A stretch of DNA of 39,264 bases from Peptococcaceae bacterium BRH_c8a (GTDB taxonomy: Bacteria; Bacillota; Desulfotomaculia; Desulfotomaculales; Desulfallaceae): the NCBI GenBank assembly GCA_000961575.1, contig LADP01000036.1, positions 88,283 to 127,546 of the forward strand, written 5' to 3'. Shown here piece by piece: positions 29,283 to 39,264 of this stretch. The notes below the pieces were generated by a model that did not search any database, had not been told where the DNA came from, and saw only the letters and a list, made by a program, of their open reading frames with translations. A program made the position numbers and the translations under genes. Each line of letters opens with the position of its first letter. The stretch's first letter is position 1.

Positions 29283-29320
29283 ACTACCCTGAAAATACTC
29301 AAAAAGTTGGTTGTAGTGGT

Positions 29321-29514
29321 GCGGCGTTCCGGTGATATCGCTCCGCTCTCTCTTGCAATTCTTATTGTTGTGCTCGGAGCGGGTTATTGTTACCGCATGA
29401 CACAAACTGCATACCCGTTTAGCTACGCCCTAAGCAGCTATGAATTCGGGGCTATGACGGGCTAATCAACGCATCCAGGTGCACCGTTCGCTCCGGATAT
29501 CACCGGATCGCCGC
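29321..29514. other. GC-rich structured stretch bounded by a 19-bp inverted repeat
   Basis: GCGGCGTTCCGGTGATATC at 29321-29339 is the reverse complement of 29496-29514 with one mismatch. Inside, CGCTCCG (29339) pairs with CGGAGCG (29375). The stretch is clearly richer in G+C than the AT-rich DNA around it. One frame is open over much of it (29283-29459), but it lacks a start codon with a ribosome binding site. It could be a structured RNA, a miniature mobile element or a decayed gene. Confidence 0.45.
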
Positions 29515-29537
29515 GAAGGTGGTTTTTTATCCTACTG

Positions 29538-29614
29538 CTGGCGCCGCATAGCGGCACGGTGGTCTACCATATAATGACTTGGCGTACGATTTTCGCGTTT
29601 TGTCGGCGCTTCCA
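29538..29614 (+). repeat. Degenerate direct repeat, copy B
   Basis: Partner of copy A (29150-29225). It also carries a strong GCCGC-ATA-GCGGC hairpin and is enclosed by CTACTG/CAGTAG and GCGCCG/CGGCGC pairing, so the whole copy could fold into one long stem. Confidence 0.4.
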
Positions 29615-30238: not shown

Positions 30239-32602
30239 ATGAATGCAGATAAAATCCAGTCCGTAAACTTATTGAAGCAAAAAATAAAAGAAGGTATAAG
30301 TTTGTTTCTTGGCTCAGGTTTTTCCGTTTTAGCTTCGAACAGTGAAGGTAAAAAACTTCCTGTTGGTTCTGCGCTTTTAAAGGAATTAAAAATAAAGTTT
30401 CCAAAAATAAATAAATTTCCTGATTTGGCAAAAGCAAGCACAGTATTAGAAGCTAATGCAAAACAAGAATTTTATAATTTTCTTGTTAATAGATTTACAG
30501 TAAAAGAATATCATAACTCCTATGAAATACTTAATGAAATGAAACTAAAAAATATATATACAACAAATATAGATAATTTAACTCATGAAATATTTAGTAA
30601 ATCCTTAAAATATTATATTAATGACACTTCTATTAAAGGGCAAGTTGTAGGGGACAAACGCACTATAAATTACTACCCATTGCATGGGTGTGTTCTTAAT
30701 CCAGAAAAAGGATTTATATTTTCAAATACAAAAATTGCTTCAGCTTATTCTGATCAAAAGGACGATTGGCAAGGATTACGCCGTACAATATTTAAAGATG
30801 CTATTCTTTTTTGGGGTTGGAGTTTTAGTGATTCGGATGTTATAGAGGCCATATATAGTTCTAGCCGTGGTGCAACCGACGATAATGTGCTTAAATGGAT
30901 AGTTTTATATGATGCAGAAGATTATGAAATAGATTTTTATCGTGCTTTGAATTTTAATATTATTAGGGCAAATACATCTGAAATGTTAGATTTTATAAAA
31001 GATGTTATAGCGGAAAGTGGTACAAGTCAAGTAAACACAAAACAACTAGATATTCCCCGAGAATATTTAGTACCTCAAATTGGTTCTGTACCATTGTACC
31101 CTCTCAGGAATTTTTATGAGGGCGATACCCCAAGATGGTCATACATTTTTTCCGGAGACATAGTTAAAACTCATTATTATAATATAATAAGCGATTTAAT
31201 AGCAACCAATAGGAATATTTTTATAATAGGTGTTCCTGCTGCTGGCAAAAGCACATTAATGATGCAACTAGCATCTGAATATAAAACAAGTAAGCATAAA
31301 CATATACTTAACGCTCCCACAAAAGAAAATGCCCAATATTATGCTAACATAATAGGAAGTGAACCATGCCTAATTTTTATTGATGAATGTTTAAGTGATT
31401 TTTTATCAATGAAAATACTATTAGAAAAATCTAATATTCAGGTTGTGGGTTTTGATAGGGATTATAGATATGAGGGCGTGTCACACAAGCTACGTAGTTT
31501 TTGTAAAGATTATGAATTATGTGACATTAGTGCTATTAATGATTTAGACATTCAAAAATTGGTTGATAAAATTCCAAGTGGATTAAGGAAAACGAGTGCT
31601 TTTGGTGTTAAAATTAAAGATAATACTATATTTGAAGTGTTGCGAAAGAATGTACAAATACCAAGATTGGAAGATCGTTTTTCAAAAGTTGTTCCACAAT
31701 TGTATGAATCTAATCCTGTAGCTACCGAGCTATTTGTTATGATATGCTATGTGCATTCATGTGGCGTGCCTGTGTCATATGATATGGTATATTCTTATTT
31801 AAGAGATGTCACTACAGACTATAAAAAGGTATATAAAATAATTGGCCAAATCGGTAGCATAATTAAAGAATACTATGGAGATTCATCTTATTTTTTAACA
31901 GGTATTAATTTTGATGAACAGGACTACTATAAATGTAGATCAAATTATCTAGCAGAACTAATTATTAGAAACATTCCTGTTTATACCGGTATTGTAAAAA
32001 ATGTTTTGAATAAATTTATTGAAAACGTACCGCCCTTTAAAATAAGTAGATTTGATATATTTAAGAAACGTGCTTTTGACGCTGATATAACAACTAGAGT
32101 ATTTAATAATTATAAAGAAGGTTTAGATTTTTATAAGGGATGTTTAATAATTGACGAATCTGAATTTTTATATCAACAAGCAGCAATATACTTTAATAGA
32201 AAAAAGAAATATAGTTTAGCTTTTGAGTGGATAGATAAAGCAAAAAACAATTCGCCTTTTAATTCATTTTCTATTCGAAATACTCACGCTATAATATTAT
32301 TTAATGCTAACTTTGAGATTGAAGATAAAGATGGTTCTGTTTTACAGTTGCTATGCGAAAGCCTTAATATATTAAAGGAGTGTTATAATAACGATAAAAG
32401 AAAAGGATTTCATGCTAAAATATTTGCGGATTTGTCCCTAAAACTTTATAGCGTCTATCCAGAAGTTGCTTATGAGTATATAGAACTTGCATATAATTGG
32501 CTAAGTAATGAAAAAGGAAATCCCGATAATGGATACACTATTCGCAAAGAAATTAACGAACTTTATAATAAAGTGAGTATTATTATCAACTATCATAACT
32601 AA
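30239..32602 (+). CDS. SIR2-domain P-loop NTPase with TPR-like tail (Avs5-like defence candidate)
   Basis: It has 787 residues; ATG 8 bases behind AAAAGGGAGG. The N-terminal SIR2 domain (about 1-260) shows the NAD-binding elements LFLGSGFS at 23-29, TTNID at 108-112, HG at 149-150 and GWSFSDSD at 193-200, so NAD cleavage looks possible. The central P-loop NTPase domain (about 290-560) has Walker A GVPAAGKST at 331-339 and Walker B LIFIDE at 378-383, in a STAND-like arrangement. The C-terminal part is helical with TPR-like repeats (about 620-780). This SIR2-STAND-repeat layout is that of Avs5-type antiphage proteins, which sense a phage protein through the repeats and then deplete NAD. The gene is very AT-rich compared with the core genes and sits beside an integrase and an IS, so it was probably acquired. 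The exact family is inference. Confidence 0.82.
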   Translation: MNADKIQSVNLLKQKIKEGISLFLGSGFSVLASNSEGKKLPVGSALLKELKIKFPKINKFPDLAKASTVLEANAKQEFYNFLVNRFTVKEYHNSYEILNEMKLKNIYTTNIDNLTHEIFSKSLKYYINDTSIKGQVVGDKRTINYYPLHGCVLNPEKGFIFSNTKIASAYSDQKDDWQGLRRTIFKDAILFWGWSFSDSDVIEAIYSSSRGATDDNVLKWIVLYDAEDYEIDFYRALNFNIIRANTSEMLDFIKDVIAESGTSQVNTKQLDIPREYLVPQIGSVPLYPLRNFYEGDTPRWSYIFSGDIVKTHYYNIISDLIATNRNIFIIGVPAAGKSTLMMQLASEYKTSKHKHILNAPTKENAQYYANIIGSEPCLIFIDECLSDFLSMKILLEKSNIQVVGFDRDYRYEGVSHKLRSFCKDYELCDISAINDLDIQKLVDKIPSGLRKTSAFGVKIKDNTIFEVLRKNVQIPRLEDRFSKVVPQLYESNPVATELFVMICYVHSCGVPVSYDMVYSYLRDVTTDYKKVYKIIGQIGSIIKEYYGDSSYFLTGINFDEQDYYKCRSNYLAELIIRNIPVYTGIVKNVLNKFIENVPPFKISRFDIFKKRAFDADITTRVFNNYKEGLDFYKGCLIIDESEFLYQQAAIYFNRKKKYSLAFEWIDKAKNNSPFNSFSIRNTHAIILFNANFEIEDKDGSVLQLLCESLNILKECYNNDKRKGFHAKIFADLSLKLYSVYPEVAYEYIELAYNWLSNEKGNPDNGYTIRKEINELYNKVSIIINYHN

Positions 32603-32701
32603 ATTAAAGGCACAATTGTGACCCCCTCCCATGAAAAACTTCTAGTTATTCATAAAGAGGGCAGGCAAAGAACATAGTGTTGAGGTAGGGGGTTAAATAA
32701 T

Positions 32702-32894
32702 TTGAAGCAAACTACTCATCCAGGATATATAAATAAAAACAATCAAATGACAATTAGACGATAGTGAACCAGGTTCAGACTATATGCAATGGTTTTACAT
32801 AATTGAATGTAGGAATTGTAATTTTAAGTACAAGGCAAATGGAACAGATATATGGCAACGAAAATGCCCCAATTGTCAAGGCGGGCGACCGTAA
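32702..32894 (+). pseudogene. Frameshifted small zinc-ribbon protein gene
   Basis: A TTG behind AGGTAGGGGG opens a frame beginning KQTTHPGYINKNNQ that stops at 32762-32764. From 32763 the next frame continues SEPGSDYMQWFY, then ECRNC and later KCPNCQGGRP up to the stop at 32892. The two parts together read like one small protein with two CxxC pairs (zinc ribbon). The start THPGY and end GGRP recall a widespread family of small zinc-ribbon proteins. One extra base near 32762 explains the break. It follows the SIR2-NTPase gene by 100 bases and may once have been its partner. Confidence 0.7.
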
Positions 32895-32924
32895 TTTATA
32901 GGATTATTAAATAAGAGTTGGAGA

Positions 32925-33770
32925 TTAATTAAACATTATTGCAAGCGGATTTGAATTAACGGCTGATTGCAACTGATGTTCATCTATATGTGTATAGATT
33001 TCAGTTGTGGCAACACTCTCATGCCCCAGTATTTGCTGAAGTGACCGTATGTCAACTCTGCCATACTTGTACATCAGTGTAGCAGTCGTATGGCGAAGTT
33101 TATGCGTAGATATATATTTAGGATCAAGTCCCGAAGCCATCACATATTTCTTAACTACGTTTTGGATAGCCCTGGTCGTCATACGTCTATTATTTCTTGA
33201 AATAAACAACGCCTTTGACGGGACATCAAGAGAATTTCTAATTTGAAGCCAATCGTTAATTGACCTTTTAGCGGCAGGGGTCAAAAAGACCTTACGCTCC
33301 TTATTTCCTTTGCCAACGATACTGATTACCTCATTATCTACTTGGTCTATGTTTAAGCTGGCCAGTTCGGATAACCGCAAAGCACAATTGAGGAAAATCG
33401 TGATTATACAATGATCCCGAGGGGAATTATTACAAGCAATTAACAGCTTGACGGACTCCTCAAGGCTAAGGTATTTAGGTATCCTTTTTGGAAGTTTTGG
33501 TGTTTCCAGTTCTTCTGCAAATTGTTTTCTATTAGATGAGCCTTGGTTTTGAGGTATTTCCAAAATTGGCGGATGGATACGATTTTTCTTGCTCGTGTAC
33601 CAGCAGAAGCATGCAGCTCAGTTTGGCAATAGGCAATGAAAGCATACATATCGTTAATAGAAATAGTTTGTATGAATTCCAAATCTACACTAGCAAAATT
33701 TTTGTTTTGTATAGGTTTATTGCTTGAGAGCATCACAAAATCAAAAAACATAAGCAAATCTGTCCGATAC
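32925..33770 (-). pseudogene. Tyrosine recombinase, C-terminal part (interrupted by IS21 and frameshifted)
   Basis: XerC/D-like phage-type integrase. The catalytic domain is complete: Arg in CALRLSEL, Lys in GKGNKERKV, HKLRH, LGHESVATTEIYTH with the active tyrosine. Two lesions break it. A one-base deletion near 33521 separates the core-binding domain (through KTKAHLIENN) from the catalytic domain (from AEELETPKLPKRIP). An IS21-family element is inserted at 33770. The missing first 30 residues are at 36317-36410. Joined across one copy of the target duplication, the frame reads ENTIKEY-RTDLLMFFDFV without a gap. It is presumably the integrase of the mobile element that brought the neighbouring genes. 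Confidence 0.9.
33766..33770. repeat. Target-site duplication, left copy
   Basis: GATAC, identical to 36317-36321 on the other side of the IS. It shows insertion by transposition into the integrase gene. Confidence 0.85.
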
Positions 33771-33868
33771 TGCATATACCGGCACATCCGGACAGCAAAC
33801 CGGCTTTATCCGGACACCTTGTCGATTGGTTAGATTGTACAGTATTGGTTTGAGACAAATCAACATTA

Positions 33869-34614
33869 CTAGCAATCGGTCTTAATGTTTTTTGCCATAA
33901 CCTCTCGCATTGACTTCTTCGAGTCGAGGGCCAGAATGTATGCATTATGAATAACACGGTCCATGATGGCATCTGCAATCGTAGGGTCAGGAAACAATTC
34001 ATACCATTTGGTATAGGCAATCTGACCGGACATACGGTAGAGGCTTTGTTATACCTGCTTTCAGCTATCTCAAGGATATCCCTGCTTTCCTCAAGAGTGT
34101 ATGATTTGAGGCCGATATCATCCAGTATCAATAATTTGATATTCTGAAGCTGAGCCATAAACTTTGTATATCGGTTTTCCTGTTTGGCATCCTGTATTTC
34201 CAGTAGGAGTTCCGGGATTCTAAAATATTTGACGGTATACCCATGACGGCAGGCACCGTTTCCAAACGCACAAGCAAGGTATGTTTTACCGCTGCCGGTT
34301 TTTCCGGAAATAACAATGTTCAGCTTCTGCTCGATAAAAGAACAGGTTGATAAAGTTTGGATTGTTTTTTTATCAATGGTCCTGTCGGCCGAGTAATTAA
34401 TATCTTCAATACAAGCGTTCAAGCCCAGGGAAGCGGCAGTCAACAGCTGCTTGATTCTTGAATTTTTTCGTGACAACCATTCCTTCTCAACCATGATACC
34501 CAGCCGTTCCTCAAAGGACAGCTCTCGCAAAGAGTGATCCGGTTCAGCCATCATTTGAGCCATCACCTTCAACTTCATGTGCCGGAGTTTCTCTACAGTA
34601 GGATTGTTAAGCAT
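33869..34614 (-). pseudogene. istB: istB, IS21 helper ATPase (frameshifted)
   Basis: DnaC-like ATPase that assists the IS21 transposase. Start LNNPTVEKLRHMKLKVMAQM behind AGGTGGTGG; Walker A SGKTGSGKT and Walker B LLILDDIG are intact. A one-base deletion near 34030-34040, after ESRYNKAST, moves the frame. The true C-terminus (GQIAYTKWYELFPDPTIAD, then LDSKKSMREVMAKN) is in the other frame and ends at 33869. If the frame is not followed, a false C-terminus runs out of the IS into the integrase remnant. Confidence 0.88.
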
Positions 34615-36161
34615 TGATACCACCACCTGAATAAGCACTGCTTCCTCTAAGGTTGTCATGTGTGATGATTCTCTCGACCTGGCTGGTTGTTGCTTTTGCC
34701 GTCAATTGTTTGAGAATGATGCTGAGATATTTGAACGAACAGGTCTTTTTATCGAGAGCTTCTCGGCTGGCTCTTTCCATGAGCTCATTGGGATGGGTCT
34801 TGGCAAGCCTCATAATCCCCATACAGGCCCGGTATGTCTGAACGGGATTCACGGCTTTCAAGGATGTGTTTGACAAGCTCACGGGTGCTAGGGCCGATTT
34901 TATCCGCCCAGGACAAGAAGCGTTCCGAACTCCAGCCGGATACAGCCTTGTGTCCTTCCGGCATATGCTCGGATAGGGTGATATACCGCTTAAAAGTATT
35001 GTAGTTTCTTGGATATGCCGCCACTCGTTCATTCTCGATATGGATCTCCACAGTTTTTGTAGTAGCCCGGATCGAGCACCGACGGCCAACATATGAGTAA
35101 TGGACGCTGTAAAAAAATCCAGCATATTCGACATGATAGTTAAACTGTACCTTTGCTTCTTTCCATTCGGAGTATTCATATTCCGTTGCAGGAAGCGGTT
35201 GCAGTGAGGGCTTGTCTATCTTTTGAAATGCAGTTAATCTGTTGCCTTCCATCTTTTGAAAGGGGCGGTTGAGCAACTTTAACAGTTCTTCCTTGATGGC
35301 CTGATTGATTTCATATAGGCTAAAGAACTGTCTGTTTCTAAGGGCGGCAAGAATCCTTCTGGACACATGGCCAACCATGTTTTCATCTGCTGCCTTATCC
35401 TTTGGTTTTCTGGCCCTTGCAGGCACCAGTGTGGTTTTGTAATGTTGAGCCATTTCGTTGTAGCTTTTATTTAAAACAGGATCAACGAGGTCGGGCGTGA
35501 TGACAGCTGTTTTGGTGTTATCGGGGATGGTGATTCTAGGAACGCCTCCAAAGTACTCATACATCCTGACATGGGCATCAATCCAGCTTGAAAGCTTCAT
35601 ATCGCTGTACGCATAGACAAACGGATAGGCACTTGCAGGCAGGACGGCAACAAATATATATGCAGGCTGGATTTCCCCGGTTCCAGGTTCCATGAAGGAC
35701 ATTTTCTGGCCGGCCCAATCGACCTCGACTTCCTCGCCTGCTTTGTGTTCCTTGTGCATAGTAATGTTGTTGACCTTTTTGAAATTCCTATAACGCTCAC
35801 AGAATTGAGTGTACATGATACCGTCAGGATGTTTTGCCTTGTATTCTTCCCACAGGAGCATCAGGGTGACACTTTTTTTCTTCATTTCACAGAAAACATA
35901 GTCCATGTCGGGCTCCGGGGGTGAGTTCTTGTTTGCTACCGGAGGATAGAGCAATGACATCAATTGCTTGTCGCTCATCTCTGTCGGCCAGACTATTTTT
36001 GCCCTTTCTGCTCGTTCAAGCACCTCTGAAACGGTGCTTTTACCACAATTGCATGAATTGCCGATTTCTCTCAGAGACAAGCCTAGCTCGTTTTTGAGCC
36101 TTAGAACTTCTCTTGCTTTTAGCATGTCGAGCCTCCTCATCTTCTGGCCCCCTTTACGCAT
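34607..36161 (-). pseudogene. istA: istA, IS21 transposase (frameshifted near the end)
   Basis: DDE transposase with N-terminal helix-turn-helix (AREVLRLKNELGLSLREIG, then STVSEVL), catalytic core with D in EVDWAGQKM, D in IPDNTKTAV and E in DKAADENMV, and C-terminal beta domain. A one-base deletion near 34845-34852 shifts the frame after LVKHILESRE. The true end continues PVQTYRACMGIMRLAKTHP in the next frame to a stop at 34607, overlapping the istB start as usual. About 517 residues when restored. Start could be 36161, 36140 or a later ATG. Confidence 0.88.
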
Positions 36162-36202
36162 TCTGCTACAAGGGTACCAGTAATTTGATTATCTCGACAA
36201 GG

Positions 36203-36300
36203 TGTCCGGATGTGACCGAAATGCTGTCCGGATAATTCCGTTATACTGTCCGGATGTTCCCGTTACGCTGTCCGGATGCTGCCGGAATCAGTGTCCGGAT
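36203..36300 (-). repeat. Multiple terminal repeats at the right end of the IS
   Basis: Five copies of TGTCCGGAT start at 36203, 36225, 36247, 36269 and 36292, spaced 22, 22, 22 and 23 bases. This is about two helical turns, so bound transposase subunits would line up on one face of the DNA. They lie upstream of istA and may also regulate it. Confidence 0.85.
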
Positions 36301-36316
36301 GTGGCCGAAATATGCA

Positions 36317-36410
36317 GATACTCCTTAATTGTGTTTTCAGAACGACCCTTTATTACGGTAAGATACCCTAAGTACTGCTCAACTAGTGGACAGGTTCTAT
36401 TAGATTGCAT
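36317..36410 (-). pseudogene. Tyrosine recombinase, N-terminal fragment
   Basis: First 31 residues of the integrase continued at 33770-32925. ATG behind AAGGAGATGATTTC; the sequence QYLGYLTVIKGRSENTIKEY is a typical SAM-like core-binding start. It includes the right copy of the GATAC duplication (36317-36321), after which the IS begins. Confidence 0.88.
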
Positions 36411-36499
36411 GAAATCATCTCCTTGCAAATAGTTTTGACATAATTTGCAGAAGATAACAATGTCTAATAATGTGAACTCATGTTTAATGGGGATATGAT

Positions 36500-38291: not shown

Positions 38292-38448
38292 GATTACACA
38301 ACTTCCAGTTATACATATTACCAATTGTTGGTTATAAAGGTTTTTTTGATTTGATCGAACAAGACCTAGCCTCATTACTTAAACCGGAGGAACATTAAAC
38401 CTGGCCTGTAATCATTAACAAAACATATTTAGCAAAGGAGTAAAAGCA

Positions 38449-38961
38449 TTGCTAAAGCTAAGTTTAGGTGGGCAAAAAATCTTAAAATCTATACATATCA
38501 TCTTGGTTTGTACGTGGATAGGTGCTGGAGTCTCCATGATAATCCTGGGGTTTGCAAAAGAGCATATAACTAACGGTGATGAACTCTACGCCTTTAATGC
38601 ATGCATAAAGTTCATTGATGATTTCATTGTAATACCTGCTGCAATTGGTACATTATTAACCGGTCTTCTTTTCTCCTGGTTAACCAACTGGGGATTCTTT
38701 AAATTCAATTGGGTAGTTGTAAAATGGGTTGCTACCGTTGCCCAAATATTGTTTGGAACCTTTTTTCTTGGACCGTGGACCAATGGTTCTACAGCGATAG
38801 CGGATGCGGAACGCCTACAGGCTTTACAAAACCCGACATATTTGTATTTTAGTCAAATGAATCAATATTTTGGTGTTCTACAGGTTTCCTTATTAATAGC
38901 GGTTGTATTTGTCTCGGTCTTTAAGCCTTGGGGTAAAAATACAAAAAAAATAAACTTCTAG
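38449..38961 (+). CDS. DUF2269-like membrane protein
   Basis: It has 170 residues; TTG start 8 bases behind AAAGGAG. Four hydrophobic segments at about 12-32, 55-75, 82-105 and 142-160. The first helix, with ILKSIHIILVCTWIGAGV, resembles the DUF2269 group of small membrane proteins. Function unknown. Confidence 0.65.
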   Translation: MLKLSLGGQKILKSIHIILVCTWIGAGVSMIILGFAKEHITNGDELYAFNACIKFIDDFIVIPAAIGTLLTGLLFSWLTNWGFFKFNWVVVKWVATVAQILFGTFFLGPWTNGSTAIADAERLQALQNPTYLYFSQMNQYFGVLQVSLLIAVVFVSVFKPWGKNTKKINF

Positions 38962-38982
38962 TTATTCTAAGTCAATTATACG

Positions 38983-39055
38983 AAGTTAGGCCGCGAAAAA
39001 GCTCAACCTAAAAAGATAGCTTGAGCTTTGGAATGGCAGAAAAGTAGCCTAACTT
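38983..39055. other. Nested stem-loop after the DUF2269-like gene
   Basis: AAGTTAGGC (38983) pairs with GCCTAACTT (39047); inside, AAAGCTCAA (38998) pairs with TTGAGCTTT (39021). Both stems are perfect over 9 bp. There is no T-run. It may act as a 3' structure of the preceding mRNA or be part of a small repeat element. Confidence 0.6.
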
Positions 39056-39081
39056 TGGATAATTCGGATAGCACGAAACTG

Positions 39082-39130
39082 CGGAGGGTGAGGCAACAAT
39101 TTATGGAGTTTCGATTGTTTTTGTCCTCCG
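39082..39130. other. Second stem-loop near the window end
   Basis: CGGAGG (39082) pairs with CCTCCG (39125) and AACAAT (39095) with ATTGTT (39114). After it (39131-39264) there is no gene. I note two direct copies of AAAACGGGCAT at 39205 and 39231 and, at the very end, AGTTATGCAGTT shared with the palindrome at 10825-10902. Confidence 0.5.
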
Positions 39131-39264
39131 TAAAAATACGATGTTCAAAGTTTTAGAGCAGTACTTTCTAATACAATAATGCCAAAAAATCTTAAAATGT
39201 ATTAAAAACGGGCATAGCTTCCCCCTCCCCAAAACGGGCATGATTTTAGAGTTATGCAGTTTGA

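What the first reader, a model, noticed from the sequence alone, without database searches (positions are those of the whole stretch)
30239..32894. Acquired SIR2-NTPase-TPR gene with a broken zinc-ribbon neighbour: possible variant antiphage system
The large protein combines an apparently active SIR2 domain (GSGFS, TTNID, HG and GWSFSDSD all present), a P-loop NTPase with intact Walker A and B, and TPR-like repeats. SIR2-STAND proteins of this layout (Avs5) are known antiphage NAD depleters. Here the gene is strongly AT-rich, lies beside an integrase and is followed by a small zinc-ribbon gene in the same direction. A two-gene version with a zinc-ribbon partner would be new to me. The big gene is intact while almost everything around it is broken, which suggests selection or recent arrival.
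Basis: partly seen in the sequence, partly recalled or inferred. Interest (0 to 1): 0.72.

Follow-up and report, generated by a model that had tools for sequence, protein, structure and literature searches.

The report
Lone Avs5-type NAD-destroying defence gene
The large gene is an intact, probably acquired relative of the known bacterial antiphage protein Avs5, which senses infection and destroys the cell's NAD; the small zinc-ribbon gene beside it is the broken end of an unrelated recombinase unit, so this is not a new two-gene system.

Summary
The 787-codon gene at 30239-32602 is real, intact and AT-rich (29% G+C; first 28 kb 50%). Its family profile aligns with Avs5-type proteins over 668 columns (hhalign E 2.6e-30); the predicted structure's best Foldseek matches are the two solved Avs5 filaments (9jap, 9nc9). 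Catalytic, Walker and hinge residues agree. I found 20 relatives, three of them fragments, in four phyla, on one plasmid and on two viral contigs; no neighbour gene recurs. The zinc-ribbon partner is not supported: window 32784-32894 is the end of a 64-aa gene, broken here, that belongs to a 1.25-kb tyrosine-recombinase unit found 92-93% identical in two relatives lacking the SIR2 gene; none of 21 homologue loci shows it (three hold under 600 bases downstream). Most likely function, inferred and untested here: a one-gene Avs5-like sensor that depletes NAD on infection. Verdict: new member of a known kind, on its own branch apart from the Avs5 proteins I could compare; its place in the published four-clade Avs5 tree was not tested.

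The parts
30239..32602 (+). SIR2-STAND (Avs5-like) gene, 787 aa, intact
30239..31015 (+). SIR2 (NADase-type) domain, about residues 1-259
   Evidence: Pfam SIR2_2 105-240, E 1.3e-11; VIA matches to ThsA, KomC and DSR2 SIR2 domains over about residues 1-260
31109..31711 (+). STAND P-loop NTPase domain, about residues 291-491 (Walker A 331-338, Walker B-like 378-383, N399/R407); the far border is an estimate
   Evidence: nSTAND_NTPase5 1.9e-7, nSTAND3 3.7e-6
32051..32599 (+). helical-repeat (TPR-like) C-terminal region, about residues 605-787, with Y632/Q647/A649/A661/A668
   Evidence: helices of the model; spacing shared with Avs5-type set
Not a partner of the SIR2 gene
32668..36476 (.). 1.25-kb tyrosine-recombinase + zinc-ribbon unit (recombinase on - strand from 32925), split by an IS21-type element
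   Evidence: 92-94% identity to G008 and G006 blocks; Pfam Phage_integrase
33772..36316 (-). IS21-type insertion (IstA-like 34785-36161, istB apparently broken) inside the recombinase gene

Best explanation
P0001 is a one-gene antiphage receptor of the Avs5 (SIR2-STAND) kind. Shown here: an N-terminal SIR2 domain with the NAD-binding and catalytic residues in place, a STAND NTPase with Walker motifs, and a C-terminal helical tail joined to it by the same conserved Tyr/Gln hinge as in Avs5-type proteins; the order and fold of the domains match the Avs5 filaments. Inferred from Avs5: the tail holds the protein inactive until it binds a phage protein, nucleotide-bound NTPase domains then assemble (Avs5 forms filaments), and the clustered SIR2 domains hydrolyse NAD+, stopping the infection. 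The trigger is unknown. The gene acts alone; the neighbouring recombinase/zinc-ribbon unit is a separate, decayed element.
For: Pfam: SIR2_2 in 16 of 16 aligned members, nSTAND_NTPase5 in 15 and nSTAND3 in 13 of 16 at E 0.01. Family profile against PDB sequences: best hit 9jap, E 4.6e-18, profile 14-500 (SIR2 and NTPase); 9nah 1e-7. hhalign of 15 family members against 6 plasmid proteins, one of them 97.5% identical to the 9jap stretch: probability 99.8, E 2.6e-30, 668 columns. Model mean pLDDT 83, pTM 0.66; Foldseek rank 1 is 9jap 'EfAvs5(SIR2-STAND)', E 1.2e-22, next 9nc9 'AVAST5 filament', 6.6e-16; VIA-align 9jap Z 21.1, rmsd 22.1, 695 residues aligned over 2-787. N110, D112, K337 and Y632 in 18 of 18 members (the 16 of A2 plus two viral-contig relatives; the three fragments not counted), Q647 16 of 18, R407 12 of 18; in the 8 other SIR2-STAND proteins N110, K337, R407 and Q647 8 of 8, Y632 7 of 8. 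The matching positions are reported as essential or conserved in PaAvs5-1 (PMC12931631, sections 11, 12, 13); I matched them by motif and spacing, not by an alignment with PaAvs5-1, whose sequence I did not have. Two viral-contig relatives lie among terminase/portal or baseplate/P2-type tail genes.
Against: Identity to the seven comparison proteins is only 13-19%, though published Avs5 clades share 18-21%. nSTAND3 sits exactly on Pfam's cut-off, 27.2 bits, and nSTAND_NTPase5 below its cut-off, 31.4 against 34; an E. coli protein of the 9jap type behaves alike, 33.2 and 32.8. Whole-chain superposition is poor: Foldseek TM-scores 0.30/0.29 and rmsd about 22 for 9jap, which I read as a different domain arrangement. 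By VIA Z alone seven chains (ThsA, KomC, one DSR2 chain; 242-252 residues, SIR2 domain only) rank above 9jap. No close relative of the gene was found, so selection to keep it could not be measured. No contrast of PADLOC hits near versus far from homologues. PADLOC names the SIR2 part only as ThsA-like, but it does not name the 9jap stretch as Avs5 either, so that is uninformative.
Confidence: 0.82

Rival explanations
1. Two-gene antiphage system: SIR2-STAND effector plus zinc-ribbon partner.
For: The zinc-ribbon ORF follows in the same direction, 181 bases after the stop.
Against: The zinc-ribbon gene is broken here, while intact 64-aa copies sit convergent with an intact recombinase in G006 and G008, which have no SIR2-STAND match. 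In two draws of 398 genomes of the phylum (probably the same set; the lists are cut) the zinc-ribbon gene is in 3 and the SIR2-STAND gene in 2, with only the window genome in both. No relative of the 64-aa protein in 21 homologue loci, best E 0.49; L011, L018 and L021 hold under 600 bases downstream of the gene, so they say little. No short two-CxxC ORF downstream in the same direction within 2.5 kb in the 18 loci.
Confidence: 0.03
2. A SIR2 effector of the ThsA or DSR2 kind that merely carries an NTPase: activation by a small signalling nucleotide (ThsA) or by direct tail-tube binding without nucleotide-driven assembly (DSR2).
For: SIR2 domain matches ThsA by PADLOC and by fold with the highest Z; DSR2 entries are among the Foldseek matches.
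Against: The ThsA match stops at residue 213; the Walker A lysine is kept in 18 of 18 members; the VIA alignments to DSR2 entries that reach past the SIR2 domain cover 317-362 residues, against 695 for 9jap.
Confidence: 0.07
3. A relic: intact by chance after recent transfer, not expressed or useful in this host.
For: Neighbouring mobile unit is decayed; strong AT bias against the host; no full homologue in 3 same-genus genomes, one of which has a weak match to the SIR2 part.
Against: 787 codons without a lesion, ribosome-binding-like site, catalytic residues kept.
Confidence: 0.15

Closest known systems
Avs5 (AVAST type 5, SIR2-STAND), e.g. EfAvs5 (9jap), AVAST5 filament (9nc9), PaAvs5-1
   Same: SIR2 + STAND NTPase + helical repeat tail in one gene; catalytic, Walker, R407-type and Tyr/Gln hinge residues; profile and fold match over nearly the whole length
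   Different: 13-19% identity to the comparison set; separate side of an unrooted 23-protein tree with support 100/99; Walker A is mostly GxPxSGKTT-like rather than the xxLGNGKS/T of six of the seven plasmid proteins; HG in 15 of 18 members and NG in 3, whereas the published set is about one to one
ThsA (Thoeris)
   Same: SIR2 domain fold and motifs
   Different: NTPase and repeats in place of the ThsA C-terminal part; the PADLOC match ends at residue 213
DSR2
   Same: N-terminal SIR2, long helical C-terminus (general layout recalled)
   Different: the VIA alignments to DSR2 cover under half of the model; the P-loop is invariant here
Human SAMD9
   Same: VIA Z 15.7-15.9 over 645-649 residues; also noted for PaAvs5 in PMC12931631 section 9
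   Different: eukaryotic, longer, about 12% identity

Membership tests
Avs5 / AVAST type 5 | N-terminal SIR2 domain (PF13289) with GxGxS, TTNxD and HG or NG | tested here: met
   SIR2_2 45.2 bits, cut-off 24.5; motifs
Avs5 / AVAST type 5 | STAND NTPase (nSTAND3, PF20720) | tested here: met
   just met: 27.2 bits at cut-off 27.2 for P0001; 13 of 16 members at E 0.01; an E. coli protein of the 9jap type scores 33.2, the L. rhamnosus one has no nSTAND3 match at 0.001; hhalign covers the domain
Avs5 / AVAST type 5 | C-terminal helical repeats with the conserved Tyr/Gln hinge | tested here: met
   model helices; Y632 18 of 18 and Q647 16 of 18; Q then A at +2, +14, +21 in both groups; the Tyr-to-Gln distance varies
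Avs5 / AVAST type 5 | near full-length homology to a solved or tested Avs5 | tested here: met
Avs5 / AVAST type 5 | acts as a single gene | tested here: inconclusive
   consistent: no neighbour family (ORFs of 50 aa or more) is in more than 2 of the 19 regions compared; single-gene action itself needs experiment
Avs5 / AVAST type 5 | place inside the published four-clade Avs5 tree | not tested
Avs5 / AVAST type 5 | phage-triggered NAD+ hydrolysis, filament assembly | not testable with these tools
   needs experiment
ThsA (Thoeris) | SIR2 followed by the ThsA C-terminal (SLOG-type, name recalled) domain | tested here: not met
   PADLOC ThsA match covers 10-213 only; a STAND NTPase follows
DSR2 | SIR2 with long helical C-terminus, tail-tube sensing | tested here: inconclusive
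   partial fold match; sensing not testable here
SIR2-STAND + zinc-ribbon two-gene system | regular co-occurrence of the two genes | tested here: not met

The most novel reading that the evidence does not exclude
The window gene and its relatives form a distinct Avs5 branch, spread through Bacillota (many from gut or rumen samples), Bacteroidota, Spirochaetota and phage regions with P2-type genes, that is not covered by the tested Avs5 clades and recognises a different, still unknown phage protein.
Probability: 0.4. Interest if true: 0.45.

Novelty: new member of a known kind. Interest (0 to 1): 0.3.

Why it matters
It extends Avs5-type NAD-depleting receptors to several phyla beyond the proteobacterial ones that have been tested and to phage-borne cargo, offering diverse sensor tails for finding new phage triggers. 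It also removes a false lead: the zinc-ribbon 'partner' is a recombinase-linked neighbour, a reminder that adjacency in a degraded mobile region is weak evidence for an operon.

Tried and rejected
Single-sequence scans for relatives in genome and viral contigs found none; the three-row alignment found 16 loci in genomes and none in viral contigs; the fifteen-row one found three viral loci. PADLOC was rejected as a membership test because it does not name the 9jap stretch as Avs5 either. NCBIfam gave only weak P-loop matches. The three plasmid searches with family members (one with the window protein, two with other members) gave one full-length family member, plus one partial Acinetobacter match with the window protein only; phage records gave none. 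A search of G426's family found the gene in 1 of 9 genomes, G426 itself. PADLOC hits near (99 genes within 3.5 kb) and far (85 genes, 3.5-8 kb) from 15 homologue loci: 84 and 71 families matched at 1e-10, no clear contrast; the tool counts families, not genes, so this is a weak test. L011, L019 and L021, the window, the viral loci and genes under 100 aa were left out of it. The ten neighbours scanned were picked by eye, so they illustrate and do not measure. No Rfam match in the window at gathering scores. Promoter-like sites are not above chance (17 against 18.4); terminator-like sites 4 against 1.4 expected, none read as meaningful. Fold families not listed are not excluded by it. Papers: PMC12931631 was seen as outline, sections 8, 9, 11, 12, 13, 17 (with its limitations part), 31 and passages of a term search; other papers only as search listings. 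I make no claim that this branch is absent from print.

Full report
The gene. Window 30239-32602 encodes one intact 787-aa protein, found once in its genome, 29.4% G+C against 49.9% for the first 28 kb. Pfam gives SIR2_2 (45.2 bits), nSTAND_NTPase5 (31.4, below its cut-off of 34) and nSTAND3 (27.2, at its cut-off).

Relatives. They are sparse. In the phylum 2 of 398 genomes had a match at 1e-12: the window genome and G426. In the class 1 of 113, the window genome itself. Among 60 relatives 4 matched at 1e-3: the window genome and three weak matches over the SIR2 part. Plasmids: 2 of 72,556 records, one covering most of the query. With a three-row profile, 16 loci came from the genome collection, by their titles Bacillota, Bacteroidota, one Treponema and one Chloroflexi MAG; three (L018, L019 of the Chloroflexi MAG, L021) hold only a fragment. 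With fifteen rows, three viral contigs were found. Two hold 786-aa members, 27-28% identical to the window protein, one with terminase and portal genes upstream, the other with baseplate and P2-type tail genes downstream. The third is a more distant 1063-aa SIR2/nSTAND5/TPR protein. Leaving that one out, this makes 20 relatives: the plasmid, G426, 16 loci, two viral contigs.

What it is. A profile of 16 members hits 9jap (E 4.6e-18, SIR2 and NTPase) ahead of all other PDB sequences. hhalign of 15 members against six plasmid SIR2 proteins of the 9jap type gives probability 99.8 and E 2.6e-30 over 668 columns, reaching into the C-terminal repeats. The AlphaFold2 model (mean pLDDT 83, pTM 0.66) finds 9jap (EfAvs5 SIR2-STAND helical structure) first and 9nc9 (AVAST5 filament) next by Foldseek, with low whole-chain TM-scores of about 0.3. 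VIA-align gives 9jap Z 21.1 with 695 aligned residues and rmsd 22.1, which I read as the same chain of domains in a different arrangement. Seven chains with higher Z (ThsA, KomC, DSR2 8ygc) align 242-252 residues, the SIR2 domain; the DSR2 chain 8wyc_B (317 residues) ties with 9jap.

Residues. Across 18 members (16 plus two viral) N110, D112, K337 and Y632 are invariant, Q647 is kept in 16, R407 in 12; position 149 is H in 15 and N in 3. In the eight other SIR2-STAND proteins N110, K337, R407 and Q647 are kept in all, Y632 in 7. For PaAvs5-1 the paper reports N110, D112, Walker A Gly362/Lys363 and Arg438 as needed for immunity, Tyr661, Trp675 and Gln677 as conserved, and NG in place of HG about as often as HG (PMC12931631, sections 11, 12, 13); I matched these by motif and spacing only. 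After the hinge glutamine, alanines at +2, +14 and +21 are invariant in both alignments. In an unrooted tree of 23 proteins the 16 members stand on one side of a branch with support 100/99; four long branches (L041-L044) make finer placement unsafe.

The zinc ribbon. The 36-codon ORF is the end of a gene that is intact, 64 aa, in G006 and G008 (92 and 94% identical over these 36 residues). There it lies convergent with an intact 317-aa tyrosine recombinase. The block is 92-94% identical to window 32668-33771 plus 36317-36476; the gap between is an IS21-type element. The flanking sequence differs in all three genomes, so the block looks mobile. G006 and G008 gave no SIR2-STAND match. In 398 genomes of the phylum the 64-aa gene occurs in 3. 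A tblastn of the 64-aa protein against 21 homologue loci found nothing (best E 0.49), while it finds its known copies at 2e-41, 1e-38 and, in the window, 2e-26; L011, L018 and L021 hold under 600 bases downstream. In the 18 loci, four short two-CxxC ORFs turned up within 2.5 kb; none is downstream in the same direction. The partner hypothesis fails.

Context. No neighbour family (ORFs of 50 aa or more) recurs in more than two of the 19 regions compared. Some loci carry restriction genes (MvaI/BcnI and Vsr in L007, GmrSD-type in L018), FRG and KAP NTPase genes (L017), or a NYN gene (L006), but these were picked by eye, and the near-versus-far PADLOC tally shows no contrast. In the window itself the left neighbours with a Pfam name are IMPDH, a RACo-type protein and DUF3888, not defence genes.

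How it most likely works. Shown: domain order, intact active-site motifs, Avs5-type fold. Inferred from Avs5: infection sensed by the repeat tail, nucleotide-dependent assembly, NAD+ hydrolysis by the clustered SIR2 domains, arrest of infection. The trigger cannot be predicted. Verdict: new member of a known kind; the interest lies in its taxonomic reach and phage carriage rather than in a new mechanism.

Noticed in passing
window 29283-29568: A roughly 285-bp repeat with a palindromic core (DNA fold z-score -2.1): 17 further matches at 87-92% identity elsewhere in the genome (only 17 of 90 candidates were scored), more diverged matches in relatives. In G006 (L072) the flanking sequence is continuous without it, with a short CTACC overlap, so it looks like a small mobile (MITE-like) element. 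No Rfam match.
   Followed up: partly
window 32668-36476; L027 9540-10795; L028 8367-9627: A 1.25-kb unit of tyrosine recombinase plus convergent 64-aa zinc-ribbon gene in three different genomic places; in G008 it adjoins a 560-aa AAA_15-type (OLD-like by eye) ATPase gene. Possibly a small mobile unit of its own.
   Followed up: partly
L069 5992-8352, L070 5995-8355: SIR2-STAND family members on viral contigs: in L069 downstream of terminase and portal genes, in L070 upstream of baseplate and P2-type tail genes.
   Followed up: partly
L006 722-1327: A NYN-domain gene lies 164 bases upstream of the SIR2-STAND gene in the same direction; not found as a shared neighbour in the other regions.
   Followed up: no
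L014, L017, L022 (SIR2 genes): A subgroup has NG for HG in the SIR2 domain and Q for the Walker B aspartate, and lacks R407: possibly altered nucleotide handling.
   Followed up: no
window 38315-38967 and 38954-39264: Repeated sequence at the contig end: a 98% identical copy on C37, and further copies of the last 300 bases on C1 and C4.
   Followed up: no
L005 5938-7745: On the Oscillospiraceae plasmid the SIR2-STAND gene follows genes annotated as Ku and DNA ligase.
   Followed up: no
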